Shown piece by piece: positions 17,531 through 30,946 of a stretch of 53,020 nt of DNA. Every line of letters starts with the position of its first letter. Within the stretch, counting starts at the first letter, position 1. A program made the position numbers and the translations under genes. The DNA lies in contig NZ_LWBS01000418.1 of assembly GCF_001652265.1 (NCBI RefSeq), forward strand, positions 1 to 53,020, in the 5' to 3' direction. The DNA comes from Rhizobium leguminosarum. Lineage in GTDB: Bacteria; Pseudomonadota; Alphaproteobacteria; Rhizobiales; Rhizobiaceae. The notes beneath the pieces were generated by a model, which worked only from the letters and a program-made list of their open reading frames with translations, searched no databases and had not been told where the DNA came from.

Positions 17531-17569
17531 AGCTGCCACCATTCACTCTAAAACGTGCTGGAGATTTCC

Positions 17570-18412
17570 ATGAATCATCGCCGCCCGACCGTCGCCGACC
17601 TGTTGTCAATCAGAGGTCACAGGCAGCTCAGCATGCTGCGGGTAGTCACGCTTGAGGAAGCCGAGGCGGCGGAGAAGGCGGGCATCGATCTCGTCTCGGT
17701 TCCTCCGGAACTGCTTGGCCCCGCCTTTCGCGAAGTGGCCCCAACCGTGTTCGCATTTCCCGGTTTGGATGATCTGATTACTGCTGAGGACTATCTTCGA
17801 GCCGCCTTCGAGGCAATTCGTGCCGGCGGCGACGCTGTCTACTGCGCCGCCGGAATGTCGACCGTGCGACGCCTACGGGAGGAAGGAATCCCAGTCTGTG
17901 GCCATGTCGGGCTTATTCCGTCTAAAGCGACATGGACGGGCGGCTTTCGCGCAGTCGGTAAAACGGCCGCCAGTGCATTTGAGGTCTGGCGTCAGGTGAA
18001 AGCTCTTGAGGAGGCCGGCGCCTTCGCAGCTGAAATCGAGGTAGTGCCTGGCGAGGTCGCTGCGGCGATTTCCAAACGCACATCACTCCTGATGCTTTCC
18101 ATGGGTGCGGGCACAGGATGTGATGCCCAATACCTTTTTGCCGAGGATGTGCTTGGGCAGAACCGGGGTCATTATCCTCGCCACGCTAAAGTCTACCGCG
18201 ATTTTGCTTCTGAATTCGATCGGCTGCATCGGGAGCGTGTGGAAGCGTTCCGCGAATATGCTGAAGACGTGCGATCTGGTGCATACCCAGAAAAGGGGCA
18301 CTTGGTCAGCATAGCGCCAGAGGAGCTCGAAGGCTTTCTGAGAAAAGTCGAAAGTGAACAGCCGTTTTCCGCCACCGCAAGAGAATGTCGTGATGGCACC
18401 GCAGCGAATTAG
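17570..18412 (+). CDS. PanB-like (ketopantoate hydroxymethyltransferase family) protein
   Basis: A 280-residue TIM-barrel protein resembling 3-methyl-2-oxobutanoate hydroxymethyltransferase (PanB) and its PEP-mutase/isocitrate-lyase-fold relatives. Seen: RRPTVADLLSIRG, the GIDLVSV strand, GGDAVYCAA, PVCGHVGLIPSKATWTGGFR (PanB has GHVGLTPQ.....GGF), and AAEIEVVPGEVAAAIS with the conserved Glu (PanB has LE.VP...A..I). The C-terminus departs from PanB. True PanB transfers a one-carbon unit from methylene-tetrahydrofolate. Here, between the O-demethylase genes and the folate gene purU, it may pass the released one-carbon unit to or from folate; that is inference. The start at 17570 is favoured by GGAG 9 bases upstream over a GTG at 17555. 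Confidence 0.72.
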   Translation: MNHRRPTVADLLSIRGHRQLSMLRVVTLEEAEAAEKAGIDLVSVPPELLGPAFREVAPTVFAFPGLDDLITAEDYLRAAFEAIRAGGDAVYCAAGMSTVRRLREEGIPVCGHVGLIPSKATWTGGFRAVGKTAASAFEVWRQVKALEEAGAFAAEIEVVPGEVAAAISKRTSLLMLSMGAGTGCDAQYLFAEDVLGQNRGHYPRHAKVYRDFASEFDRLHRERVEAFREYAEDVRSGAYPEKGHLVSIAPEELEGFLRKVESEQPFSATARECRDGTAAN

Positions 18413-18421
18413 GGATAAAGC

Positions 18422-19306
18422 ATGACCAATTATGTTTTGACGGTGACGTGCAAATCGACACGCGGCATCGTGGCGGCGATTTCGAGCTATCTGGCCGACA
18501 AGGGCTGCAACATCATCGACAGCTCGCAGTTCGACGATCTCGATACCGGCAAGTTCTTCATGCGCGTCAGCTTCATTTCGGAAGAGGGTCTTTCGGGCGC
18601 CGATATCGACGCCGGTTTTGCAGCCGTCGCCGCTCCTTTCGAAATGGATTATGATTTTCACGACAGCGAGAAGCGCATGAAGGTGCTGCTGATGGTGTCG
18701 CGTTTCGGCCATTGCCTCAACGACCTGCTCTATCGCTGGAAGATCGGCGCACTGCCGATCGATATCGTCGGCGTCGTCTCCAACCATTTCGATTACCAGA
18801 AGGTCGTCGTCAACCACGACATTCCCTTCCACCATATTCCCGTCACCAAGGCCAACAAGGCGCAGGCCGAGGCCCATATCATGGAAGTGGCCGAGCAGAC
18901 CGGCACGGAGCTGATCGTGCTCGCCCGCTACATGCAGATCCTGTCGGACGAGATGTGCCAGAAAATGTCTGGCCGGATTATCAACATCCACCATTCCTTC
19001 CTGCCGAGCTTCAAGGGCGCCAACCCTTACAAGCAGGCCTACGGCCGCGGCGTGAAGCTGATCGGGGCGACGGCGCATTACGTCACCGCCGATCTCGACG
19101 AAGGCCCGATCATCGAGCAGGATACGGCGCGCATTACCCATGCACAGTCACCCGACGACTATGTCTCGATCGGCCGCGACGTCGAAAGCCAGGTGCTGGC
19201 GCGTGCCATTCATGCCCATATCCATCACCGCACCTTCATCAACGGCAACCGCACCGTCGTCTTCCCGGCAAGCCCCGGAAGCTTCGCTTCGGAAAGGATG
19301 GGGTGA
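18422..19306 (+). CDS. purU: Formyltetrahydrofolate deformylase
   Basis: A 294-residue PurU, which hydrolyses 10-formyltetrahydrofolate to formate and free folate. Residues about 1-80 form an ACT domain (NYVLTVTCKSTRGIVAAISS) and about 85-285 the formyl-transferase fold. Catalytic features seen: NIHHSFLPSFKGANPYKQAY, GVKLIGATAHYVTADLDEGP and IIEQDTARI. Length is normal and the frame intact. Codon use is cleaner and more GC-rich than in its neighbours (long runs of codons ending in C or G), like a chromosomal housekeeping gene, so it may be a recent copy moved onto the plasmid. It begins 9 bases after the PanB-like gene and suits disposal of the one-carbon unit released by MocDEF. Confidence 0.93.
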   Translation: MTNYVLTVTCKSTRGIVAAISSYLADKGCNIIDSSQFDDLDTGKFFMRVSFISEEGLSGADIDAGFAAVAAPFEMDYDFHDSEKRMKVLLMVSRFGHCLNDLLYRWKIGALPIDIVGVVSNHFDYQKVVVNHDIPFHHIPVTKANKAQAEAHIMEVAEQTGTELIVLARYMQILSDEMCQKMSGRIINIHHSFLPSFKGANPYKQAYGRGVKLIGATAHYVTADLDEGPIIEQDTARITHAQSPDDYVSIGRDVESQVLARAIHAHIHHRTFINGNRTVVFPASPGSFASERMG

Positions 19307-19312
19307 GGCACG

Positions 19313-20117
19313 GCGTATGTTTTGCTGGGAAAACCAATCGCCGATCGGGTCCTCGATGCAGTGAAGGCAAGGGCAGCTGAGCTTCAGAACACCTCTGGGG
19401 TCGAAGCCGGTCGCAGTGGTCATTCTTGGGGACGATCCGGCTAGCCGTACCTATCTGAACGCCAAAAGCGAGATGGCCAGCCGGTGTGGCTTCCGTTCGA
19501 TGCAGTATAATCTTCCTGCAGAAACCTCACAGGAAGAGCTGCTAGATCGGATAGCGCTGCTGAATGCGGACAAAGTTATCCACGGAATCCTCGTTCAGTT
19601 GCCATTGCCGAAACACTTAGAGCAAGAAGAGATCATCCGGTCTATTCTGCCGGAGAAGGACGTCGATGGCCTGCACGTCGTAAACGCCGGGAAAGTGGCG
19701 AGTGGGAATCTCGTTACTGGACTGGTCTCCTGCACACCGGCCGGTGCTATGATGCTCATTCGGCACGCCGACGGAGACAACCTTTCCGGCTGAATGCTCT
19801 TGTCATCGGTCGGCCGTCCCGAATTGGTTCGCGGTGATTGGCTGAAGCCAGGCGCGACAATCATCGATGTCGGTATAAACCGCCTGCTGGCTCCAGAATA
19901 GGGCGAGGGCAAGACACGGCTTGTCGGAGATGTTGCTTTCAAGGAGGCTGAAAAAGTCGCGGCGGGGATCACGCCCGTTCCAGGAGGTGTCGGGCCTATG
20001 ACGATCGCCATGTTGATGGCTAACACTCTAAAATGTGCCGAAGATTCACTTGCGCGTTTTAGCGAGGCATCGAACATGCCCCAGCTTTCGGAGCGCCAGC
20101 CTGCAGCACTCAGATAG
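19313..20117 (+). pseudogene. folD: Methylenetetrahydrofolate dehydrogenase/cyclohydrolase remnant
   Basis: FolD sequence broken in several ways. The first part ([20 protein letters not shown]) shifts frame near 19400 into [20 protein letters not shown]. Next come [20 protein letters not shown] and [20 protein letters not shown], ending at a stop at 19791-19793. Most of the NADP-binding segment is then missing, about 40 codons by comparison with normal FolD. The C-terminal part resumes as [20 protein letters not shown], is cut by a TAG at about 19900, and ends with [20 protein letters not shown]. With a frame shift, a deletion and stops it cannot make active enzyme. It follows purU directly, so it once belonged to the same folate block. 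Confidence 0.9.
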
Positions 20118-20282: not shown

Positions 20283-21146
20283 TTAGCCCACATGGGCAAC
20301 AAGGTCAGTGAGGTCATCGAGATTGACTTCGTCGCGCCTGAAGGTGCCAACAACCTTTCCCTGCGAGAGGACAACAAGATCGTCAGCGACCGCTAGGGCG
20401 TGCCGGAAGTTATGGGTGATGAAAATGACGGCCTGACCTTGGTCGCGGGCAGTGACGATATGATCGAGAACCTTGCCCGCCTGCCGCACCGCTAAGGCCG
20501 ATGTCGGCTCGTCGAGAATGAGGAGAGAGGATCCAAAATACATGGCCCTGGCGATAGCGAGCGACTGGCGCTCGCCACCGGATATGTTTGCTCCTCTTTC
20601 GTCCAAGCCGCGCTCCCAGCGCACGCCTAACCGATGAAGAGCCGACTGCGCCATCTCATTTGCGCGTTTTAGATCGAGCCATTTGAACGGGCCTAAACCC
20701 CGTTGCGGTTCTCGTCCGAGAACGATGTTACGGGTGACGGAGAGAAGTTCGCAAACCGCCAAATCCTGAAACACCGTGGCGACGCCACGTTCACGCGCGT
20801 CCTTCGGATTGCGGAAAACAATGGCTTCCCCATTGAAGCGCAGCTCGCCGCGATCCGCTGGAAATACTCCGGAAAGGATTTTGATCAACGTGGACTTGCC
20901 CGCTCCATTGTCGCCTAAAAGGGCAAGAATACGACCCGAGTAGGCTTTGAGAGACACATCCACCAAAGCCGTGGTCGCGCCAAAGCCCTTCGATAGTCCG
21001 ATGGCTTCAATGACCGGCACGTCTGCCGGTTTAATTGGCTCAATCTGGCGCGTGAGCCCCCTCATATCATCGCTGCCGCTGCCTGCGGGTAAGGCACGAG
21101 TAGCGACCGCTGCCTGGCTGTCATTAGAGATCACGTCCTTGCTCAT
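20283..21146 (-). CDS. Sugar ABC transporter ATP-binding protein
   Basis: A 287-residue ATPase with one nucleotide-binding domain of the ribose/xylose class. Seen: Walker A GDNGAGKST, Q-loop VFQD, signature ISGGERQ, Walker B LLILDEPT and the switch histidine in FITHN. Many ribose-class ATPases carry two such domains in about 500 residues; this is the single-domain type. The N-terminus has about 45 extra residues of no known role. It starts 6 bases after the permease gene ends, so the two are co-transcribed. It powers uptake of the sugar or polyol bound by the protein encoded at 22325-23338. Confidence 0.92.
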   Translation of the reverse strand: MSKDVISNDSQAAVATRALPAGSGSDDMRGLTRQIEPIKPADVPVIEAIGLSKGFGATTALVDVSLKAYSGRILALLGDNGAGKSTLIKILSGVFPADRGELRFNGEAIVFRNPKDARERGVATVFQDLAVCELLSVTRNIVLGREPQRGLGPFKWLDLKRANEMAQSALHRLGVRWERGLDERGANISGGERQSLAIARAMYFGSSLLILDEPTSALAVRQAGKVLDHIVTARDQGQAVIFITHNFRHALAVADDLVVLSQGKVVGTFRRDEVNLDDLTDLVAHVG

Positions 21147-21152
21147 TTCAAT

Positions 21153-22253
21153 TCATCCGTTCGTGTTCTTGCTGATCGCGGTCTGGGCGTTGATTGCTGC
21201 GTCTGCTGTCGAACTGCCCCGACGATAGCCCGACAAAGGTCGCGACTTTGACATCCGCTTGCTGATCGATGTATTGAGGATGACGGCACCAACCACGATC
21301 ATTCCGGTGAGGGTCTTGAAGAGATGACCCGGAGCTCCCGCAAGAACCAGCCCGACCTGGATCATTCCGAAGGTAACGGCGCCCAGGATCGTTCCAATAA
21401 CGCTACCATAGCCACCGGAGAGGAGTGTCCCCCCGATCACTGTCACTGCGACCGCTTGAAGTTCGAAACCTTCGCCCCGCAGCGCATCTACGGATCCAAA
21501 GCGAGCAACCTGAATTATTCCTGCAATCGCAGCCAGCGCTGAGCAGATCATGAAGACGATGATGGTGACCCTATCGACCGGTACGCCGAGATTCCTGGCC
21601 GCGTTCTCGTTCTGGCCCCGTGCTTGGATCCAGTTACCGAGTTTCGTACGGGAGAGCAGAAGCGTCCCTGAAATCCCTATCAAGAGAAACCATAACATCG
21701 ACATACGAAAATCGCTGATCAACGGTCCGGCCATCGTCGCCCGGAAGCTTGCAGGGATCTCCACCGTCATCGGAAATCCGCCGGTAAGCGCAATCAAAAC
21801 ACCGCGCCAAATGAGCATTGTGCCAAGCGTCACCACGAAAGAGTGGATGCGGAAACGCACAACCATGTATCCGTTGACCGCCCCCAGCGCTGCGCCGGCG
21901 GCGATCGCGACGGCCGATGCCGAAACTGGATCAAATCCATAATCGCGCATCAATACAACACAAACGTAAGATGTGAGGCCGAGTACAGCGCCGACCGAAA
22001 GATCGAAATGACCGCAGATCATCAACAGCGTGGCGCCGATAGACACGATCCCGAGTTCAGCAGCGATTGCCATGATGCTGATATAAGTAATCTTGGTCGG
22101 AAACAGCTGCGGCGCAAGTAGGGAAAACAGGATGAAAAGGATGACAACGGCAGCGACCGATGTTGCTTCAGGCCGAAGCATGAAGCGGCGGAACGCTTCA
22201 GCGCAAGCGATGCTGCGTGTAGGGGCCTGGGCGAGGTGGACTTCGTCGGACAT
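21153..22253 (-). CDS. Sugar ABC transporter permease (RbsC class)
   Basis: A 366-residue inner-membrane permease of the ribose class, with about eight to ten hydrophobic segments. Recognisable stretches include GHFDLSVGAVLGLTSYVCVV, GAVNGYMVVRF, HSFVVTLGTMLIWRGV, GVPVDRVTIIVF and GGTLLSGGYGSVIGTILGAV, all typical of RbsC-like proteins. It probably works as a homodimer with the ATPase encoded downstream. It lies 71 bases after the binding-protein gene, separated by a hairpin that would lower its expression relative to the binding protein. The substrate is unknown. Its place between the moc island and the mos-like operon points to an inositol or rhizopine-like compound. Confidence 0.92.
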   Translation of the reverse strand: MSDEVHLAQAPTRSIACAEAFRRFMLRPEATSVAAVVILFILFSLLAPQLFPTKITYISIMAIAAELGIVSIGATLLMICGHFDLSVGAVLGLTSYVCVVLMRDYGFDPVSASAVAIAAGAALGAVNGYMVVRFRIHSFVVTLGTMLIWRGVLIALTGGFPMTVEIPASFRATMAGPLISDFRMSMLWFLLIGISGTLLLSRTKLGNWIQARGQNENAARNLGVPVDRVTIIVFMICSALAAIAGIIQVARFGSVDALRGEGFELQAVAVTVIGGTLLSGGYGSVIGTILGAVTFGMIQVGLVLAGAPGHLFKTLTGMIVVGAVILNTSISKRMSKSRPLSGYRRGSSTADAAINAQTAISKNTNG

Positions 22254-22284
22254 TTTGGCCTCCCGCCAAATTGATTAGAAGATT

Positions 22285-22310
22285 GCGACCCGGCGAAATG
22301 ACCGGGTCGC
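22285..22310 (-). promoter_or_regulatory. Intergenic hairpin between binding-protein and permease genes
   Basis: GCGACCCGG at 22285-22293 pairs perfectly with CCGGGTCGC at 22302-22310 around an 8-base loop. It follows the stop of the binding-protein gene and has no strong U-run. Such hairpins commonly protect the upstream message and lower expression of the permease; the role here is inferred. Confidence 0.6.
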
Positions 22311-22324
22311 TCCCAGACTATCGC

Positions 22325-23338
22325 TCAACGATAGCCCTTGCCCACCAGCGCCTGAACCTTCTCAACGTTGGTCTTGTCCACGATCGTCGGGCCGGTCAGG
22401 AAGTAGTTTCCTTCGAGCAAGCCATATTTCAGGTAGTGAGTGAGCAGCAGAACAGGCATGTAGCCGCGCCAGAACTGCTGCTGGTCGATGGTGAAAGCCT
22501 GCCGCCCATCACTGATCGCCGTGAGCGATTGTGCATTGATGTCGTAGCCGGTCAGGATCAGATCGTTCCGTCCGCTGTCCGCTTTCGCCGTCAGGAAGCC
22601 GTCCACCACGTCACATGTGCTCGTCGCGGCGACTGTGTCAGGGTTGCGACGCAGATAGTTGGATAGGGTTTCGGCCTGCTGGCCCGGATCCATTGACATT
22701 TCCAGGAAGTCCGCCGTGATCCCACCGGCTTTGAGGGCATCTATTTCGGAGGTTGCACGCAGCTGGCAAGTTGCGTCACCGGATTGCTGATTGGCAACAA
22801 CCACGCGTCCTTTTACGCCCATGTCGCGCAGACGTCGGGCCGACAGCTGTCCGGCGGCGCCTTCGTCAGAACCGGCGCGGAAGAGAAAAATATCGTCCGG
22901 CTTTCGGATGTGCGACCCCGGCGCAGGCGCCGCGGCGCTGCCGAACGCGATCCCGGCTTCTTTGGCTCGTGCAGCCACATCGGCATAGGCGGCGTCGTCG
23001 GCGAAAGCGCAAACCGCGATACCGTCCGCCTGAGCTGCCATGGCTTCCTCGATCTTTTGGATCTGGTTGGGAATTGTCAGCTGGTCGGGATAGATATAGT
23101 TGACCTTGACTCCAAGGTTTTTTCCGGCCTCTTCAGCGCCGCGCGCAAGATAGCCGTGGAAGCCGGTTGGCGCCGCACACCCGACGAAGTAGATGGAAAT
23201 ATTTTCTTCGGCAAATGCAGGTGCTGCATTTGAAATGCAGATGAGCATAAGCGCCCATGCCAATGTGCTGGTGGCGGCAAGGGCTTTACTAGCCGACATC
23301 ATTGCGCAGTTGTTTAGTAGCGGTTTTAACGCTTGCAT
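22325..23338 (-). CDS. Ribose-class periplasmic substrate-binding protein
   Basis: A 337-residue solute-binding protein. The start at 23338 (MQALKPLLNN) follows AAGGGAA by 6 bases; the frame stays open far upstream but that part is non-coding in character. A hydrophobic segment (ALAATSTLAWALMLICISNA) and an APAFA cleavage site form an unusually long signal peptide of about 43 residues. Then come ISIYFVGCAAPTGFHGYLAR, IQKIEEAMAAQADGIAVCAF, GRVVVANQQSGDATCQL and DLILTGYDINAQSL, as in ribose- or autoinducer-2-type binding proteins. It is the first gene of the three-gene transporter operon. The promoter lies within about 500 bases shared with the divergent mos-like operon. Confidence 0.88.
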   Translation of the reverse strand: MQALKPLLNNCAMMSASKALAATSTLAWALMLICISNAAPAFAEENISIYFVGCAAPTGFHGYLARGAEEAGKNLGVKVNYIYPDQLTIPNQIQKIEEAMAAQADGIAVCAFADDAAYADVAARAKEAGIAFGSAAAPAPGSHIRKPDDIFLFRAGSDEGAAGQLSARRLRDMGVKGRVVVANQQSGDATCQLRATSEIDALKAGGITADFLEMSMDPGQQAETLSNYLRRNPDTVAATSTCDVVDGFLTAKADSGRNDLILTGYDINAQSLTAISDGRQAFTIDQQQFWRGYMPVLLLTHYLKYGLLEGNYFLTGPTIVDKTNVEKVQALVGKGYR

Positions 23339-23839
23339 TGTTGTTCCCTTTGTTCTTCCGCGCAAGTGTAATTCAGTCGCGGGTTTGAGAACATTAGACA
23401 GTATTGGGTCGATAAATAGAACCGTTTCTGAACGATTTCTCAGGTCCACATCCGGCCTGAGGCGGCGAGCGTTATCGGAGCTAACGAAAGCCTTTGACGA
23501 TGAGTGGAGCATGCGGGCAGCACGCAGCTTTGCGAGTGAGATCGAGCTGAGCATGAGCTGGCAGTCCGTAATCCGCACATTATTGGCGGCGGATCGGTGC
23601 GGAAACGCCACATCAGGCAGATCAAAAAACGTAGGGAGATAGCATTTCGCGAGCACGGTGAACGCGCGGCAGAGTAATAAACAGCTCGCGCGAAGACCGC
23701 CGTCATACAAATGAGGCCGAACGGGGCGCGAAAGCCCTCTCCCAGAGATAGAAACCGCAGAACCCAAGATGGGTTTCGACTCACCTGTGTCGGACGGGCC
23801 TGCAACTGAAGACAACAATCCAGACATGAGCACGTCCAA
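23339..23839. other. Divergent control region
   Basis: About 500 bases between the transporter operon and the mos-like operon. No protein family is recognisable on either strand. It should contain the transporter promoter; the mos-side NifA and sigma-54 elements begin at its right edge. Confidence 0.5.
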
Positions 23840-23855
23840 TGTCGGACATCCGACA
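23840..23855 (+). promoter_or_regulatory. NifA upstream activator site, upstream copy
   Basis: TGTCGGACATCCGACA is a perfect TGT-N10-ACA NifA site. It stands 45 bases ahead of a -24/-12 element in front of the truncated aminotransferase copy. Confidence 0.8.
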
Positions 23856-23899
23856 CCGCCAAGCGCGAAACTTCCCCTCATTTCCGATGCGAGTCTGGT

Positions 23900-23915
23900 T
23901 GGCACGAGCAGCGCT
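23900..23915 (+). promoter_or_regulatory. Sigma-54 (-24/-12) promoter, upstream copy
   Basis: TGGCACGAGCAGCGCT keeps the GG-N10-GC core of sigma-54 promoters and a perfect TGGCACG at -24; the -12 half is weaker (CAGCGC in place of TTGC). It would transcribe through the truncated copy into mosB. Confidence 0.7.
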
Positions 23916-23956
23916 TAGAGTAGGCCGAGGATGCACCAACCAGACAGAGGATAAAG

Positions 23957-24190
23957 ATGCGCTCAAGCCCAAACTTTCGGGTTCTCTCTGCGGACCCAAG
24001 CGAAACCTGGACGCTGCATCCGTGGCCGATTCTGACGGGAGCGATCTACCGGAAAGTCATCGTGTGTATTTCGCCTGGTGAACTATCCGGCTCGGGTTTG
24101 GAAGTCATCAACGAGTTTGAAAAGAAGTGGAGAATTGGATCGGCAGTGGTCATGTCGTCTCGACAAATAGCGGCACTGCCGCGCCGATGA
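23957..24190 (+). pseudogene. Truncated duplicate of the mosB 5' end
   Basis: The first 56 or so codons (MRSSPNFRVLSADPSETWTL, then HPWPILTGAIYRKVIVCISP and GELSGSGLEVINEFEKK) are a diverged copy of the start of the aminotransferase gene at 24352. After EFEKK a deletion shifts the frame. The DNA still matches the intact gene (tracts encoding NSGT and ALM) up to about 24190. It then joins a second copy of the promoter region. It cannot make an active enzyme, although a peptide of about 77 residues is open. Confidence 0.88.
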
Positions 24191-24207
24191 TAGCTCTACA
24201 CGATCAT

Positions 24208-24230
24208 TGTCCAATGTCGGACATGCGACG
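24208..24230 (+). promoter_or_regulatory. NifA upstream activator site for mosB
   Basis: TGTCCAATGTCGGACA at 24208-24223 is a perfect TGT-N10-ACA. A second, overlapping site at 24215-24230 ends in ACG, so it is one base off. In the upstream copy the opposite member of the pair is the perfect one. The site lies about 50 bases ahead of the -24 element. Confidence 0.8.
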
Positions 24231-24274
24231 CAGCTCAGTTCGAATTTCCTCTTTATTTTCAATGGAAATCTGGT

Positions 24275-24290
24275 TGGCACGAGATGTGCT
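24275..24290 (+). promoter_or_regulatory. Sigma-54 (-24/-12) promoter of the mos-like operon
   Basis: TGGCACGAGATGTGCT has the full TGGCACG -24 box and GG-N10-GC spacing, with GTGCT at -12 against the consensus TTGCT. It stands about 62 bases before the mosB start codon. With the NifA site upstream it predicts expression in nitrogen-fixing bacteroids. Confidence 0.82.
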
Positions 24291-24351
24291 CAGTATGGAA
24301 GCGGGCAACATTGACGCCCGGGATGCACCAACCCACACGGGGGTAAATTAA

Positions 24352-25617
24352 ATGCCATCAAAGCCAAATTTTCAGGTTCCCTCTGCGGAGCCAAACGGAA
24401 CCCGGACGCTGCATCGGTGGCCGATTTTAACGGGAGCGAACTACCGGAAAGTCATCGCGTGTATTTCGTCTGGTGAACTTTCCGGCTCGGGTCTGGAAGT
24501 CATTAATGAGTTTGAAAAGACGGTGGAGAATTGGATCGGCGGCGGTCATGTCGTCTCGACAAATAGCGGCACTACCGCGCTGATGGTGGCCCTCCTGACG
24601 CTCGGCGTTGGGCCGGAAGACGTTGTTCTTGTGCCTTCCTACACCTGGAGCGCCACTGCATTTGCAGCGACTCTTATCGGCGCCATTCCCCGCTTCGTCG
24701 ACATTGATAGCGACACCTACAATCTCTCTACCGAGGCAGTGGCTAAAGCGATTACGCCGGACGTCAAGGCAATCATCGTCGTTCATATGCATGGCCTGAG
24801 CTGCGAAATGGACGAGATTACCGCCATTGCGCGGGAGAAAGGAGTTCCCATCATTGAGGACTGCGCCCAGGCCCACGGCGCACTCTATAAGAAACAGTAT
24901 GTCGGGACTCTCTCTGACATCGGCTGCTTCAGCATGCAGAAAAGCAAGCATTTCTCCGCCGGCGACGGTGGCTTCCTTGTGACGAGAAATGCCGCCCTTG
25001 CCCAAAAGGCACGCGATATCTGCAACTTCGGCCTTCCTACGCCAAAGCATAATTATCACTTTGAGGAGGGGCTGCGGGAAGGATATGCCGTCTTTCGTGA
25101 GTGCGAGCAGATCGGCGGCATGTTTAGGTTAAACCCGCTTTCGGCGGCTCTGGTGATCGATCAGCTAGAGCATCTCGATCAACGGATAGAATGGCTCCAG
25201 GAGGCTATGAAGCCACTCGTTGCGGAGGCGGCACAAGTTCCCTTTCTCAAAATCACCCAGCCCGGCTCCCACCAAACGCATGTTTGGCACAAGATCCGCG
25301 TCGGTATCGACTATGGGGCAGTTGATCACTACGGGAGATCAATGGCGGACATCAGACAAGGGCTGCGCAACACTCTTGCTAGGAGCGGCATTCCGAGCAC
25401 GCTGTGGACAGCACCTATACTCCCGCTTCAGAAGGTGTTCAGGCCGTATGCGGGCACGATCGACTGGACCAAAACTGCGGGGCACCTTGCAATCGAAAAC
25501 TCGTTCATCGTTTTCGACGAGAAGTACCCATTGATTGCCCAGGACCCCTCAACCATGACGGCTCTCGTTTCGAAGCTCAGGCAAGTCTGGAGCGATTACT
25601 TTGCCTCATTAGAATAG
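24352..25617 (+). CDS. mosB: MosB-like scyllo-inosose aminotransferase (DegT/DnrJ/StrS family)
   Basis: A 421-residue PLP aminotransferase of the DegT/DnrJ/EryC1/StrS family. Seen: NSGTTALMVALLTLGVGPED, PSYTWSATAFA, IIEDCAQAHGALYKK (PLP Asp) and CFSMQKSKHFSAGDGGF with the PLP lysine. The last resembles the QQSK..T.GEGG motif of L-glutamine:scyllo-inosose aminotransferases such as StsC. The rhizopine synthesis protein MosB of Sinorhizobium meliloti belongs to this family. It would convert scyllo-inosose to scyllo-inosamine, the core of rhizopine. It opens a five-gene operon (82 bases to mosC) behind a NifA/sigma-54 promoter. The family is certain; the MosB name rests on motif and context. No mosA (DHDPS-like) gene is in the window. 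Confidence 0.85.
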   Translation: MPSKPNFQVPSAEPNGTRTLHRWPILTGANYRKVIACISSGELSGSGLEVINEFEKTVENWIGGGHVVSTNSGTTALMVALLTLGVGPEDVVLVPSYTWSATAFAATLIGAIPRFVDIDSDTYNLSTEAVAKAITPDVKAIIVVHMHGLSCEMDEITAIAREKGVPIIEDCAQAHGALYKKQYVGTLSDIGCFSMQKSKHFSAGDGGFLVTRNAALAQKARDICNFGLPTPKHNYHFEEGLREGYAVFRECEQIGGMFRLNPLSAALVIDQLEHLDQRIEWLQEAMKPLVAEAAQVPFLKITQPGSHQTHVWHKIRVGIDYGAVDHYGRSMADIRQGLRNTLARSGIPSTLWTAPILPLQKVFRPYAGTIDWTKTAGHLAIENSFIVFDEKYPLIAQDPSTMTALVSKLRQVWSDYFASLE

Positions 25618-25699
25618 ACAAGCAACCCACGGGCCTGATGGTTCTCGCAGCTCTACGCAGGTCCTGATCACCATCTCGACAACGGAAGCGGAGCCTCCA

Positions 25700-26863
25700 A
25701 TGAGTAGCGTTCGCATATTTGTTCCCCAAAAGCGAGTCATGGCGGTGGCTTTCCAGTTCTTTATAAACGGAGTGGTATATGGCACCTGGGCGACAAACAT
25801 ACTTCATATCCGACGGTCGTTTGGTCTGAACGAGTTCGGGCTCAGCATCGTGTTCCTAACAATGGGAGCCGCAGCGGTGTTGATCATGTCGCTCACCGGT
25901 TATCTCGTGCAGATTTTCGGGAGCCGGCGGATATCGATCCTGTCCTGCCTATTCTTTCCAGCTGCGCTATGTTTTGTGTTTGTAGCTCCAAACCACATCG
26001 CCCTCCTGGTCGGCGTCGGCCTGTTCGGCGCCGCGAACGGCTCAATGGACGTTTCGATGAACGACCAGGGCACCAATCTTGGTAAGAGAGGAAGCGATCC
26101 CGTCATATCGCTACTGCATGGTTTCTCCAGCATTGGAGCGCTTGCGGGTTCACTTCTGTCCTACTGGTGGATTGGTAGAGGCTATCATCCGGTGGTCCAG
26201 GCCATTGCCTTGCTGGTTGGCACTATAATGCTTTCTTGGCGACTCTTCCCACACCTTGATCTGGACGCTGATCGGAGCAGGATCAGTCTGGAGTTAGGGG
26301 CATTGGGCAACGGCAGGCTCATTTTGCTCGGATTCCTGTCATTCCTCACCATGATGAGCGATGGAGCAATCGCCGATTGGAGCACGATCTATCTAGAGGA
26401 CTACTGGCCGACGTCGCCTCAGACTGCCGTCCTGGGTTACCTCGCCTTTGCGGTCTTTATGATCGTCGGCCGGATCTCAGGAGACCGCATCGGAAGCGTT
26501 ATCGGTGATCGCGCCATGATTGCGATTAGCGGCGGCCTCATGTCGGCGGGCATGACAATAGCATTGTCAATCCCGTTTTTCGCAGCTGCGCTCGCCGGCT
26601 TTTCCTTACTGGGCATAGGCATGGCTAACCTAGTGCCTATCATCTTCAGAAATGCAAGTGAGGTGGTGCCAGACGGTCTCGGGACCGCATTTGTGTCGGT
26701 CTGCGGCTATTCCGGATTTCTCGTCGGTCCACCCATCATTGGTGGCGCGGCCGGCGCAGTGGGGCTCAACAAAGCCTTGCTGATCGTCAGTGCGGTCGGA
26801 GCGACGCTGGCGTATGCATCGGTCCTTTTTCAAGGACGCAAACGCCCGCCCGCTTCCCGCTGA
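25700..26863 (+). CDS. mosC: MosC-like MFS transporter
   Basis: A 387-residue major facilitator superfamily membrane protein with about twelve hydrophobic segments, for instance GLSIVFLTMGAAAVLIMSLT, GVGLFGAANGSMDVSMNDQG, LLGFLSFLTMMSDGAIADWS and GFLVGPPIIGGAAGAVGLNK. MNDQG and WS.IYL are typical of the FucP/YfcJ-like branch. MosC of the rhizopine synthesis locus is a membrane transport protein and also follows mosB. It may export the product from the bacteroid or import its precursor; direction cannot be read from sequence. GGAG lies 6 bases before the ATG. It is second in the operon, 82 bases after mosB and 52 before the next gene. Confidence 0.8.
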   Translation: MSSVRIFVPQKRVMAVAFQFFINGVVYGTWATNILHIRRSFGLNEFGLSIVFLTMGAAAVLIMSLTGYLVQIFGSRRISILSCLFFPAALCFVFVAPNHIALLVGVGLFGAANGSMDVSMNDQGTNLGKRGSDPVISLLHGFSSIGALAGSLLSYWWIGRGYHPVVQAIALLVGTIMLSWRLFPHLDLDADRSRISLELGALGNGRLILLGFLSFLTMMSDGAIADWSTIYLEDYWPTSPQTAVLGYLAFAVFMIVGRISGDRIGSVIGDRAMIAISGGLMSAGMTIALSIPFFAAALAGFSLLGIGMANLVPIIFRNASEVVPDGLGTAFVSVCGYSGFLVGPPIIGGAAGAVGLNKALLIVSAVGATLAYASVLFQGRKRPPASR

Positions 26864-26915
26864 TGGCCTTGGGATGAGTGGCAATAGGCCTTTATTGCAA
26901 AAGGGAGGCTTTAAC

Positions 26916-27644
26916 ATGAAAAGGAGAGACGTGCTAACCCTCATCGGGGCGCTCGTTGCCGCCGGTCCGATCGGATGCAAGCCCGCCTGTGGCGAGGAAA
27001 TGAGTGGATACCCGACCGGGACTGACTCAAATAAAAGATCCCCCCTGAAGTCGATCGAGCACGGGGGTTTTCGCAAGGCTCTCATGGATGATGAGGACGT
27101 GAGGACCCTAAAGGCGGTATTTGATCGTCTGATTCCCGAAGATCAGTTTGGACCATCAGCATCGAAAGTTGGATGCCTTGATTTCCTCGACGCACAACTT
27201 ACCGGCGGGTACGGGGAAGCCTCGACGCTCTATCGAGAAGGACCTGAGCAACCGCACGAAGAGCAAATGCTTCAGAGGGCCCAATTTATCGCCACACCGC
27301 GCGAGCGATACCGTGCCGGCCTCCAAGCGCTGCGAGCTCATACCTTAGAAACGGACGGCGCATCCTTCGCCGACCTGCCGCCGAGCCGCCAGGATGAAAT
27401 TCTAGCAGGTATGGAGCAGGGCACGATCAAATTGGGAATGGCCAATGCAAGGGCTTTTTTCGAACTTATGTTGACCAATGTCCGCGAGGGTTATTTCGCC
27501 GATCCGTACTATGGCGGGAACAAAGATATGGCGGGCTGGAAGATGATCGGCTTCCCCGGCGCTCGCTACGACTACAGAGCTTACACCGACCGGACAGGAC
27601 AGAAGCTCAATCTGGTCCCCGTCAGTCTCGTTCCGAAGAACTGA
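26916..27644 (+). CDS. Gluconate 2-dehydrogenase subunit 3 family protein (gamma subunit)
   Basis: A 242-residue exported protein of the gluconate 2-dehydrogenase subunit 3 family. It begins with a twin-arginine-like signal (MKRRDVLTLIGALVAAG), as usual for the small subunit that carries the flavoprotein across the membrane. Diagnostic stretches: LKAVFDRLIPEDQFGPSASK, GCLDFLDAQLTGGYG, FFELMLTNVREGYFADPYYG and GWKMIGFPGARYDYR. The start at 26916 follows AAGGGAGG by 9 bases. With the GMC flavoprotein and cytochrome c encoded next it forms a membrane-linked dehydrogenase. It is third in the NifA-type operon, joined to mosC without a terminator. The polyol it helps to oxidise is unknown; myo-inositol is a reasonable guess. 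Confidence 0.9.
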   Translation: MKRRDVLTLIGALVAAGPIGCKPACGEEMSGYPTGTDSNKRSPLKSIEHGGFRKALMDDEDVRTLKAVFDRLIPEDQFGPSASKVGCLDFLDAQLTGGYGEASTLYREGPEQPHEEQMLQRAQFIATPRERYRAGLQALRAHTLETDGASFADLPPSRQDEILAGMEQGTIKLGMANARAFFELMLTNVREGYFADPYYGGNKDMAGWKMIGFPGARYDYRAYTDRTGQKLNLVPVSLVPKN

Positions 27645-27688
27645 GGAAGCGTTTCTCTGCTTCCTGCAACTATCGAGGTCCAACAAGT

Positions 27689-29473
27689 ATGACCACCAGA
27701 CACACCAATCCTAAGGTTGACGCTGTCATCGTCGGGTTCGGCTGGGCAGGTTCGCTCATGGCCGCGGAACTTTCCCGCGCAAATATGAACGTCGTCGCGA
27801 TTGACCGCGGTCCTTGGCGAGATACCTTTCCAGATACGCCGCTTACGGCTGATCCCGACGAGTTGCGCTGGAAAACACGCAGGGAGCTGTTCGCACCGCC
27901 GCACGACACCACCATCACCATGCGCAACACGTTGGACCAGACGGCCGTGCCACAGCGTGACTTCGGTATTTCGGAGCTCGGCGGAGGCGTCGGGGGCCAG
28001 GGGTTCCAATGGGCAGGAATGGCCTGGCGCTTCAGTCCCTGGGACTTTCGGGTTCGTAGCGAAACGATCGAACGCTATGGCATGGCCCGCGCTGAAGACG
28101 GGGAGTTGCAGTTGCAGGACTGGGGCATCACCTACGCTGAACTGGAACCCGACTATGATCGTTGGGAGCAAATTGCAGGCGTAGCCGGTCAGGCAGGCAA
28201 CCTCGGGGGCAACCTCACAAGCAGGGGCAATCCCTTCGAAGGGCCGCGGTCGCGGGAATACCCGACACCGAAGCTGAAAACGCTCCGCATGATGGAGATT
28301 TTCAACAAGGCGACATCGGAGATGGGTCTTCACCCTTTTACCATTCCCTGTGCGAATGTCTCGCAGGCTTACGTCAATCCGCTCGGTGTTACGATGGCGC
28401 CATGTTCCTATTGCGGCTTTTGTTCGTCCTACGGGTGCGGCAACTATTCGAAGGCAAGTCCGCAGACGTGCGTCTTTCCAGCTCTGTTGAATAACAACCC
28501 CAACTTCAGGCTCATCACCAACGCATGTGTCACGCGCGTCAACAAAGCTGCTGACGGAAAATCTGTGACCGGCGTGACCTATATCGACCAGAGCGGTCGC
28601 GAGGTTCTGCAGCCGGCCGATATCATTTGTCTAACGGCTTTCCAAATGGAAAACGTTCGACTAATGCTTCTGTCGGGCATAGGCAAGCCGTATGACCCGC
28701 TCACAAGCGAAGGTGTCGTCGGCCGCAATTTCAGCTTCCAGACCGTGTCGGGGGCAGATCTCTGGTTCGAGGAAGACCACATCAATCCGTTCATCGGGGC
28801 CGGTGGCTTAGGCTCTCAAATCGACGACTACAACAGCGACAATTTCGACCACTCGTCACTCGATTTCATCGGTGGGGCGGGCATCCTGACTCTTTCGCGC
28901 GACGGCACACCGATTGCCAACGCCAACAAGCTGCCACCTGGTACGCCACGCTGGGGCTCGGGCTTCAAGAGAGCTTATTCGAAGTACTACCAGAACTATG
29001 GAGTCCTGTTCAATCAAGGGACATCGATGCCAATCAAGCGTGGGTACCTTGATCTCGATCCCACCTACAAGGATCCCTTCGGCCTTCCGCTGTTACGTCT
29101 GACATACGACTATGCCCGAAATGACCGCGCCATGGCGACGTTCACCATGAATCGCGCGATACAAATCGGCAAACGAATGGGCGCATCGCAGTTCAGCGCC
29201 TTCAACTTCGCCGAGAAACCATTCACCACGGCGATCGGCGCTTCAAACCATACGATAGGTGGCGCCGTCATGGGGGCCGACCCGACCAGTTCGGCGGTAA
29301 ATTCGTACCTTCAAAGCTGGGACTGCCACAACGTCTTCGTCGTCGGTGCATCGGCCTTTCCCAACAACGGTGGGTACAATCCGACGGGCACCGTGGGCGC
29401 GCTGGCGTTACGCGCGGCGCGCGCGATCTGCGGAGATTACGCTCGCAAACCCGGCGCATTGCAGAAGGGCTGA
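27689..29473 (+). CDS. GMC-family FAD dehydrogenase (large subunit)
   Basis: A 594-residue flavoprotein of the glucose-methanol-choline family, of the gluconate / sorbose / glucose dehydrogenase alpha-subunit type. Seen: the FAD loop VDAVIVGFGWAGSLMAAELS and IDRGPW, the GGGVGGQGFQWAGMAWRFSP region, a cysteine-rich segment (APCSYCGFCSSYGCGNYSKA) like that which binds an Fe-S cluster in FAD glucose dehydrogenases, and the C-terminal catalytic SNHTIGGAVMG and GYNPTGTVGALALR. It would oxidise a sugar or polyol in the periplasm and pass electrons to the cytochrome c subunit. It begins 44 bases after the gamma subunit gene. In this operon the likely product is an inosose for MosB to aminate; that is inference. 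Confidence 0.92.
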   Translation: MTTRHTNPKVDAVIVGFGWAGSLMAAELSRANMNVVAIDRGPWRDTFPDTPLTADPDELRWKTRRELFAPPHDTTITMRNTLDQTAVPQRDFGISELGGGVGGQGFQWAGMAWRFSPWDFRVRSETIERYGMARAEDGELQLQDWGITYAELEPDYDRWEQIAGVAGQAGNLGGNLTSRGNPFEGPRSREYPTPKLKTLRMMEIFNKATSEMGLHPFTIPCANVSQAYVNPLGVTMAPCSYCGFCSSYGCGNYSKASPQTCVFPALLNNNPNFRLITNACVTRVNKAADGKSVTGVTYIDQSGREVLQPADIICLTAFQMENVRLMLLSGIGKPYDPLTSEGVVGRNFSFQTVSGADLWFEEDHINPFIGAGGLGSQIDDYNSDNFDHSSLDFIGGAGILTLSRDGTPIANANKLPPGTPRWGSGFKRAYSKYYQNYGVLFNQGTSMPIKRGYLDLDPTYKDPFGLPLLRLTYDYARNDRAMATFTMNRAIQIGKRMGASQFSAFNFAEKPFTTAIGASNHTIGGAVMGADPTSSAVNSYLQSWDCHNVFVVGASAFPNNGGYNPTGTVGALALRAARAICGDYARKPGALQKG

Positions 29474-29476
29474 CCA

Positions 29477-29929
29477 ATGGCGGAGTGGAAAAACATTATT
29501 GGTGCGCTCGTCGTTGCGGCCTTCGGTGGCTCAGTCCACCAGGCGGACAATCTCTTCGTTTTAAGTCGATCGCTCGTCGTTGATTCCACCCGCGCCCCGA
29601 TGCCCATTCCTTCCTGCGCAATGGCACAGGCAGCACTTAGCTACGAGGTGAATTGTTCGACTTGCCACGGCGCTCGGGGCGAAGGCATCGAGTCAATGAT
29701 CCCATCGCTTGCCGGGAACGGTGTCCCTAAGGCTAAGCATCTGATTGAAATGATCATTGCCGGCACAACCGGCGGGCAGGGGGGAGTTCACATGCCGCCG
29801 TTTGGGTGGAAAATGAGCAATGAAGAGATCGCGCGACTGGCAAATCACGTTCTCAGCAATTGGGGCGGCGCCACGATTTGCGTCACAGCTGAAGATGTCG
29901 CCAACGTGCGAGAGACACTCGCGGGATGA
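29477..29929 (+). CDS. Cytochrome c subunit of the GMC dehydrogenase
   Basis: A 150-residue exported cytochrome c. A hydrophobic N-terminus (NIIGALVVAAFGGSV) serves as signal or anchor. One heme site is seen, CSTCH at about residues 56-60, with the likely axial Met in GVHMPPFGWKM and the usual LSNWGG near the end. Gluconate-type dehydrogenases often have a three-heme cytochrome; this short one-heme form would pass electrons to the respiratory chain one at a time. It starts 3 bases after the flavoprotein gene, so the pair is tightly coupled. It is the last gene of the mos-like operon. Confidence 0.9.
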   Translation: MAEWKNIIGALVVAAFGGSVHQADNLFVLSRSLVVDSTRAPMPIPSCAMAQAALSYEVNCSTCHGARGEGIESMIPSLAGNGVPKAKHLIEMIIAGTTGGQGGVHMPPFGWKMSNEEIARLANHVLSNWGGATICVTAEDVANVRETLAG

Positions 29930-30932: not shown

Positions 30933-30946
30933 TTGATGTGGATCAA
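30933..30946 (+). promoter_or_regulatory. FixK/FNR box upstream of fixN
   Basis: TTGATGTGGATCAA is a perfect TTGAT-N4-ATCAA anaerobox, 79 bases before the fixN start. It predicts activation by FixK or FnrN under low oxygen. Confidence 0.92.

What the first reader, a model, noticed from the sequence alone, without database searches (positions are those of the whole stretch)
23840..29929. NifA/sigma-54-driven operon joining rhizopine-type synthesis genes to a respiratory GMC dehydrogenase
Seen: a TGT-N10-ACA site and a GG-N10-GC promoter in front of five closely spaced genes: StrS-type aminotransferase, MFS transporter, gluconate-dehydrogenase-type gamma subunit, GMC flavoprotein and cytochrome c. 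Known: the rhizopine locus mosABC of Sinorhizobium meliloti has a DHDPS-like mosA, a DegT/StrS-like mosB and a transporter mosC, with symbiotic expression. Inferred: mosA is absent here and a periplasmic polyol dehydrogenase takes a place in the operon. It may supply the inosose that MosB aminates while feeding electrons to the high-affinity cbb3 oxidase, so compound synthesis would be linked to bacteroid respiration. I do not know of a description of this arrangement.
Basis: partly seen in the sequence, partly recalled or inferred. Interest (0 to 1): 0.85.

Follow-up and report, generated by a model that had tools for sequence, protein, structure and literature searches.

The report
Rhizopine synthesis operon mosBCDEF, already known
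This is the known rhizobial operon that makes a rhizopine, an inositol-derived compound produced in legume nodules; the order of its five genes and the role of its dehydrogenase were published in 2019, but its smallest subunit looks like a cut-down cytochrome, which we found no account of.

Summary
In detail: five same-strand genes (24352-29929) behind NifA-type and sigma-54-type sites, no mosA. The arrangement is not new. Geddes et al. 2019 (PMC6668481, passages) named mosDEF downstream of mosC in many rhizopine loci, found mosBCDEF in all 3-O-MSI producers tested, and showed that MosDEF behaves as an ononitol dehydrogenase whose product MosB aminates. The window carries orthologs, linked to moc catabolic genes with an NCBIfam-level MocR and to nif genes and rpoN. 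Coupling to the cbb3 oxidase is untested; fixN has its own perfect FNR/FixK-type box.

Beyond the finding: (1) promoter and mosB 5' end are tandemly duplicated, the first copy a 77-residue remnant; (2) MosF keeps only the third heme domain of the usual triheme subunit: one CxxCH in 12 of 12 mos rows, three in 19 of 20 non-mos triads surveyed; (3) a 73% MosE relative with a triheme cytochrome lies beside a mocDEF-type demethylation cluster in a genome without a mosB match, suggesting recruitment from methyl-inositol catabolism.

The parts
23834..24209 (+). Upstream copy of a tandem duplication: NifA-type site, sigma-54-type promoter and frameshifted 5' end of mosB
   Evidence: 308 identities, 65 mismatches, 26 gap letters against 24209-24604; repeat families at spacing 375-396
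23840..23855 (+). TGT-N10-ACA NifA-type upstream site, copy 1 (TGTCGGACATCCGACA)
23900..23915 (+). -24/-12 sigma-54-type site, copy 1 (10 of 12)
23957..24190 (+). mosB remnant, 77 residues then stop; also 77 residues in L001, L051 and L053
   Evidence: tblastn pieces
24208..24223 (+). TGT-N10-ACA NifA-type upstream site, copy 2 (TGTCCAATGTCGGACA)
24275..24290 (+). -24/-12 sigma-54-type site, copy 2 (11 of 12)
24352..25617 (+). mosB, DegT/StrS aminotransferase
   Evidence: PF01041 258.9 bits; 72% to S. meliloti, 75% to G008; second best solved relative is glutamine-2-deoxy-scyllo-inosose aminotransferase 2c7t
25700..26863 (+). mosC, MFS transporter
   Evidence: PF07690 63.9 bits; 51.7-52.6% to S. 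meliloti type loci, 63% to G008
26916..27644 (+). mosD, gluconate-dehydrogenase subunit 3 family, RR in the N-terminus (Tat-like, by eye)
   Evidence: PF13618 104.6 bits; N-termini
27689..29473 (+). mosE, GMC flavoprotein with CxxCGFCxxxxC and an N-H pair at 518-519
   Evidence: PF05199/PF00732; alignment to fructose dehydrogenase large subunit; motif; tree
29477..29929 (+). mosF, cytochrome c with one CxxCH (CSTCH): N-terminal stretch plus third heme domain of the triheme family

Best explanation
The unit is a rhizopine synthesis operon of the known mosBCDEF type on a symbiotic replicon of a Rhizobium near R. leguminosarum. In nodules, NifA with RpoN would switch it on (inferred from the sites). 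MosDEF, a three-subunit FAD dehydrogenase (MosD probably carries MosE out by Tat, MosE holds FAD and probably an iron-sulfur cluster, MosF takes the electrons), oxidises host ononitol to 3-O-methyl-scyllo-inosose; MosB aminates the ketone with glutamate to 3-O-methyl-scyllo-inosamine; MosC moves a substrate or product across the membrane (inferred). The oxidation and the amination were shown by others with S. meliloti L5-30 genes; here they are inferred by orthology. [quoted passage not shown] The linked moc genes would let free-living sister cells use the product.
For: Order and identity: of 15 loci searched with window proteins, 13 hold a full-length mosB (11 distinct records, two being held twice), and in 13 of 13 mosC, mosD and mosE follow in order. 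In the Rhizobium-type loci the five proteins are 92.7-100% identical, and 10.1 kb match at 97.8-98.0% in 5 plasmid records. Published function: PMC6668481 passages, PMC10107442 passages. MosE of window, S. meliloti and G008 fall in one clade, 100/97, whose other rows are near-copies of them. UAS and sigma-54-type sites before mosB in the window, in 2 of 2 Rhizobium-type relatives tested, in G008 and, further upstream, in 6 of 6 S. meliloti/kummerowiae loci tested. MocR 757.6 bits against a cut-off of 650; moc-box pair before mocD with 2 mismatches, none that good in 10 resampled sequences. NifA and two RpoN genes in the genome.
Against: No expression, metabolite or enzyme data for this strain. 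S. meliloti L5-30 itself was not among the loci seen, so orthology is to other S. meliloti loci. MosF evolves fast: 39% to G008, and no S. meliloti row was printed (rows under 35% identity were dropped there), though a cytochrome c is annotated at that place. Which promoter copy works is unknown; UAS and -24 element are 60-67 bases apart, against about 103 at nifH.
Confidence: 0.92

Rival explanations
1. MosDEF is an ordinary gluconate or glucose dehydrogenase that merely lies behind mosBC.
For: The family of MosD is Gluconate_2-dh3; some sources name relatives gluconate 2-dehydrogenase alpha chain; the closest solved relatives are fructose and glucose dehydrogenases.
Against: Published mosE mutant and mosDEF expression data (PMC6668481); mos MosE rows form their own clade; the order B-C-D-E is kept between lineages whose MosE differ by 20-24%; the nearest non-mos relative whose context I saw lies beside mocDEF-type genes.
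Confidence: 0.04
2. One reading: MosDEF of this strain oxidises myo-inositol to scyllo-inosose, so that scyllo-inosamine is the product.
For: MosB also aminates scyllo-inosose in vitro (PMC6668481); a strain lacking mosA was reported to make scyllo-inosamine (title of Rao et al. 1995 in the reference list shown; paper not read).
Against: mosDEF in Rm1021 nodules gave 3-O-methyl-scyllo-inosose, and mosE mutants accumulated ononitol. The substrate of this strain's enzyme is untested.
Confidence: 0.15
3. Rhizopine synthesis and bacteroid respiration are coupled: electrons from MosDEF pass through MosF to the cbb3 oxidase encoded next door.
For: MosF lacks two of the three heme domains of the family, and its best Pfam model is the cbb3 subunit III cytochrome domain; ccoN/fixN follows in the Rhizobium-type loci.
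Against: fixN has its own FNR/FixK-type box; fixN was not found beside mos in the stretches held of S. meliloti or G008; a small flux need not matter to respiration; other cytochrome frames in the genome could take the electrons.
Confidence: 0.2
4. The promoter-plus-mosB remnant is a working element (second promoter or regulatory RNA), not decay.
For: UAS and sigma-54-type sites are kept in copy 1 in the window, L001 and L053; 3 of 6 S. meliloti/kummerowiae loci also carry two such units.
Against: The coding part ends after the same 77 residues in window, L001, L051 and L053; no remnant was found in G008 or the S. meliloti loci; retention may only reflect recent shared ancestry.
Confidence: 0.25

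Closest known systems
mosABC / mosBCDEF rhizopine synthesis loci (S. meliloti L5-30 and others, PMC6668481)
   Same: Same five genes in the same order and NifA/sigma-54-type sites; in the S. meliloti loci seen here also moc genes nearby.
   Different: No mosA in the string; duplicated promoter with mosB remnant; fixN downstream; an ABC transporter divergent from mosB that is also in G008 but was not found in the 9-12 kb held upstream of mosB in S. meliloti loci.
GMC heterotrimers of the gluconate/glucose/fructose dehydrogenase type (FDH 7w2j, BcGDH 6a2u)
   Same: Gluconate_2-dh3 subunit, GMC flavin subunit, cytochrome c subunit; an N-H pair of MosE aligns with an N-H pair of FDH, apparently the N1146/H1147 named in entries 8k6k and 8k6j.
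   Different: The cytochrome subunit has one heme motif instead of three; the cysteines of MosE are spaced otherwise than those of FDH in the alignment.
BcGDH engineered to the third heme domain only (PMC9727119, passages)
   Same: MosF keeps the N-terminal stretch and the third heme domain.
   Different: Natural, in three mos lineages; electron acceptor unknown.
moc rhizopine catabolism locus (mocCABRDEF)
   Same: MocR equivalog hit, mocDEF-type genes, binding protein 88% to that of S. meliloti, moc-box pairs.
   Different: PanB-like, PurU and a broken folD relative follow mocF; these did not appear in the moc passages read.

Membership tests
mosBCDEF rhizopine synthesis locus | mosB ortholog | tested here: met
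   72% to S. meliloti, 75% to G008 over nearly full length; the next full-length relatives listed are at about 28-33%
mosBCDEF rhizopine synthesis locus | mosC, mosD, mosE in order behind mosB | tested here: met
   13 of 13 loci with full mosB
mosBCDEF rhizopine synthesis locus | cytochrome gene mosF behind mosE | tested here: met
   window; annotated cytochrome c in S. meliloti L003; 12 of 12 mos rows match the third heme domain behind mosE
mosBCDEF rhizopine synthesis locus | makes 3-O-MSI in nodules | not testable with these tools
   no metabolite data
mosBCDEF rhizopine synthesis locus | expression under NifA and RpoN | tested here: inconclusive
   sites present and recurring, regulators encoded; dependence needs an experiment
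GMC heterotrimer of the gluconate dehydrogenase type | small subunit with Tat-type export signal, flavin subunit without one | tested here: inconclusive
   RR near the N-terminus of MosD in 3 of 3 lineages looked at, judged by eye; no signal-peptide program was available
GMC heterotrimer of the gluconate dehydrogenase type | triheme cytochrome c subunit | tested here: not met
   one CxxCH in 12 of 12 mos rows; whole frames checked for window, L003 and L048
moc rhizopine catabolism locus | MocR of the rhizopine type | tested here: met
   NF052281 757.6 bits, cut-off 650
moc rhizopine catabolism locus | mocDEF | tested here: met
   FA_desaturase and ferredoxin-reductase-type frames; Rieske-type frame between them judged by eye from the translation and annotated so in L001; mocD and mocF relatives 70-83% in S. 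meliloti

The most novel reading that the evidence does not exclude
MosDEF is a natural third-heme-only GMC dehydrogenase. It descends from a methyl-inositol catabolic dehydrogenase with a triheme cytochrome that worked beside a mocDEF-type O-demethylase; on recruitment to rhizopine synthesis the cytochrome lost its first two heme domains and kept the N-terminal stretch and the heme nearest the iron-sulfur cluster, so that its electrons leave directly to periplasmic cytochrome c and the high-affinity oxidase of the bacteroid instead of the quinone pool.
Probability: 0.3. Interest if true: 0.55.

Novelty: already known. Interest (0 to 1): 0.3.

Why it matters
As given, the finding rediscovers a published pathway from sequence alone and adds one more strain. 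What could matter is the reduced cytochrome: Geddes et al. could not move MosDEF into plants and suggested that it may need the bacterial membrane or the symbiotic electron transport chain. If MosF is a one-heme outlet, its electron acceptor becomes a concrete, testable question, and the 73% relative with a triheme subunit is a ready comparison enzyme. The shared neighbourhood also suggests how a synthesis pathway for a nodule-specific nutrient arose from the breakdown of plant methyl-inositols.

Tried and rejected
Novelty of the gene order: rejected. Gluconate dehydrogenase as the real function: rejected on published mutants and the tree; no substrate was assayed. fixNOQP as part of the same operon: rejected, own FNR/FixK-type box and a gap of 1096 bases. 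A NifA-type promoter for the divergent ABC transporter: no minus-strand sigma-54-type site of 9 or more of 12 in 23338-23900. A MocR site for it: the pair at 23452(-) has 6 mismatches, where 2.5 such pairs are expected in the window, inconclusive. Its binding protein as a member of the rhizopine binding-protein family: best model NF052284 but 138.4 bits against a cut-off of 420, not met. The genome-contig scan for MosB gave 33 loci, best segments at most 42% identical; none was used. Phage collection: no match. Heme naming in fructose dehydrogenase: no paper with all three terms; PMC7506675 passages held nothing useful. Structure prediction and fold search were not run. That no account of a one-heme MosF was found rests only (openly licensed PMC papers; in PMC6668481 the words heme, cytochrome and MosF do not occur in the main text; supplementary files could not be opened, so the loci of its Supplementary Fig. 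5 were not seen).
Full report
What is there. The window is the whole contig C418 of its genome. It also holds nifH, nifD, nifK, nifE, nifN and rpoN, fixN from 31026 (96-98% to ccoN of the relatives), and moc genes at about 12-19 kb. The nearest records are plasmids of 270-388 kb from R. leguminosarum, R. lentis and R. indicum: 10,101 bases at 97.8-98.0% in 5 of the 10 records with any match.

Promoter. An exact TGT-N10-ACA is found 13 times in the window, so alone it says nothing. Coupled to a sigma-54-type site (at least 9 of 12 consensus positions; consensus recalled, not from a call) it is found 3 times against a mean of 0.45 in 20 resampled sequences; two of the three are the mos sites, 23840/23900 and 24208/24275. 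The same two units stand before mosB in L001 and L053, the 2 Rhizobium-type relatives given to that call. G008 has UAS at -180 and -173 and a sigma-54-type site at -114. The 6 S. meliloti/kummerowiae loci have 12-of-12 sites about 0.9 to 2.1 kb before mosB, two units in 3 of 6 and one in 3 of 6. UAS to -24 spacing is about 60-67 in the Rhizobium types and about 103-104 in S. meliloti, the latter like that before nifH in the window. NifA is encoded on C471 (607.2 bits, cut-off 528.85) and RpoN twice, once in the window. NifA dependence is inference here; for rhizopine genes in general it is stated in PMC6668481 and PMC10107442 (passages).

Tandem duplication. 23834-24209 and 24209-24604 are copies, 308 identities, 65 mismatches, 26 gap letters, covering promoter and first part of mosB. 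The upstream copy reads 77 residues and then stops; L001, L051 and L053, the three relatives looked at, show a remnant of the same length. No such piece was found in G008 or in the S. meliloti loci.

Already known. Geddes et al. 2019 (PMC6668481; [quoted passage not shown] PMC10107442 and PMC12897901 repeat the pathway (passages).

Orthology. In one search I searched 15 loci with window proteins (matches under 35% identity were not printed). In 13 of 13 rows mosC, mosD and mosE follow in order. The remaining 2 (L004, L057) hold only a broken mosB, beside a dapA gene in L004 (L057 has no annotation). Of the records listed I fetched 6 of 8 S. meliloti-type ones with full mosB and 2 of 5 with broken mosB; of the 5 Rhizobium ones, 4. 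Close mosB relatives are rare: 4 of 148 genomes of the genus (one is the window's own), 1 of 394 in the family sample and 1 of 397 in the order sample, the one being its own (samples drawn from larger groups, only the best 4 candidates per genome scored in the last two).

The dehydrogenase. MosE aligns over its length with fructose dehydrogenase large subunit (7w2j, 106.5 bits) and FAD glucose dehydrogenase (6a2u, 80.8 bits); an N-H pair of MosE (518, 519) falls on an N-H pair of FDH, apparently the residues changed in entries 8k6k and 8k6j (their numbering was not checked). It has CxxCGFCxxxxC from residue 239, shared with S. meliloti, G008, Pantoea and Thioclava relatives; that these cysteines hold an iron-sulfur cluster is inferred from the BcGDH description. 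In a tree of 65 rows (9 with known place and 56 of the 120 relatives listed), window, G008 and S. meliloti MosE form a clade at 100/97 whose other rows (P0003, P0005, P0006) are near-copies of them; P0004 and P0007 branch next (100/99, then 90/87), and a 17-row clade with G071 is sister. The tool counts 4 changes for the label mos; this is because the near-copies bear no label, and it does not speak for several origins, but the context of P0004 and P0007 is unknown.

MosF. The window protein has one CxxCH, as have S. meliloti (L003) and G008 MosF, whereas the G071, G105, Pantoea and Thioclava triads have three in 436-439 residues. By BLASTP MosF matches the third heme domain of the triheme subunit (window against G071: residues 40-149 on 311-428, 44%, 3e-28) and, for the window and S. 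meliloti proteins but not G008, its N-terminal stretch (34% and 40%); the first two heme domains are missing. The survey covered 12 mos rows (window and 11 loci; L049 and L051 left out as repeats), each with one CxxCH in the matching stretch, and 20 distinct non-mos triads (17 of the 25 non-mos places, those for which a locus was returned, and 3 plasmid loci), of which 19 have three; in L089 no cytochrome was matched. Five larger cuts of the same places were run too and agree. [quoted passage not shown] So MosF is plausibly functional and a natural counterpart of that construct. Where its electrons go is not known. A search of the own genome with the triheme subunit found, besides MosF, one frame matching 43-410 and two matching only the first two domains (one with a stop inside); these could serve as partners, which would weaken the direct-route reading.

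Origin. G071, which has no mosB at the threshold used, carries a MosDEF-like triad (73% MosE, 63% MosD, triheme relative of MosF) next to a binding protein 75% identical to the window's moc binding protein, ABC genes, a Gfo/Idh-type enzyme, and genes 78% to mocD and 60% to mocF followed by PanB-like, PurU and FolD relatives. This looks like a catabolic cluster for methylated inositols (inference). In line with it, R. mesoamericanum raises mocDEF and mocB homologues in Mimosa root exudate whose most concentrated component is pinitol (PMC5789663, passages; those authors read it as rhizopine catabolism). One reading is that the synthesis operon took its dehydrogenase from such a cluster; the direction of transfer was not tested.

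Respiration link. The gap between mosF and fixN is 1096 bases, with a perfect TTGAT-N4-ATCAA at 30933; sites with up to one mismatch number 4 in the window, 1.49 expected, and 9 of 100 shuffles reach 4, so the count is unremarkable and the case rests on the perfect match just before fixN. fixN was found beside mos only in the Rhizobium-type plasmids; in S. meliloti L003 purU, panB-like and moc genes follow, and in the 9.7 kb held behind G008 mosF no frame matched the window's fixN. The proposal that synthesis feeds the cbb3 oxidase is neither shown nor excluded; the reduced MosF makes it worth testing.

Verdict. Observation confirmed; interpretation mostly right in outline but already published, with ononitol as the substrate shown. 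Interest 0.3, most of it for the one-heme MosF and the catabolic sister locus.

Noticed in passing
window 17555-19306 and about 19320-20040: PanB-like (102 bits against a panB cut-off of 208) and PurU genes follow mocDEF, then a folD relative that stops after 125 residues, with more folD-like sequence behind it by eye. PanB-like and PurU also stand next to mocF in S. meliloti and in the G071 cluster, suggesting one-carbon disposal for rhizopine O-demethylation.
   Followed up: partly
window 14718 (+), 13151 (-), 6816 (+): Pairs like the published moc-box (11-base direct repeat, 13-base spacer) with 2, 4 and 4 mismatches stand before mocD, the moc binding protein and the iolE-like gene; 0.2 pairs with 4 or fewer mismatches are expected. 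The iolE-like gene may belong to the MocR regulon.
   Followed up: partly
window 20283-23338, minus strand: Divergent sugar-type ABC transporter beside mosB, 86-90% conserved in G008 (mosB 75%), not found in the stretches held of the S. meliloti mos loci. Candidate carrier of ononitol, the ketone or rhizopine.
   Followed up: partly
L002, L003, L055 upstream of mosB: These S. meliloti mos loci also have two NifA/sigma-54-type units in tandem while L005, L054 and L056 have one: promoter duplication may have happened more than once.
   Followed up: no
L004, L057: S. meliloti ml56 and SM11 keep only a broken mosB, in ml56 beside a dapA gene; no mosC to mosE was matched in the stretches held.
   Followed up: no
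plasmids collection; protein P0010: Four plasmid records match MosE at 90-95% but rank below the 60 rows listed, so probably short pieces; P0010 (453 aa, 98%, 76% of the query) may be a cut copy.
   Followed up: no
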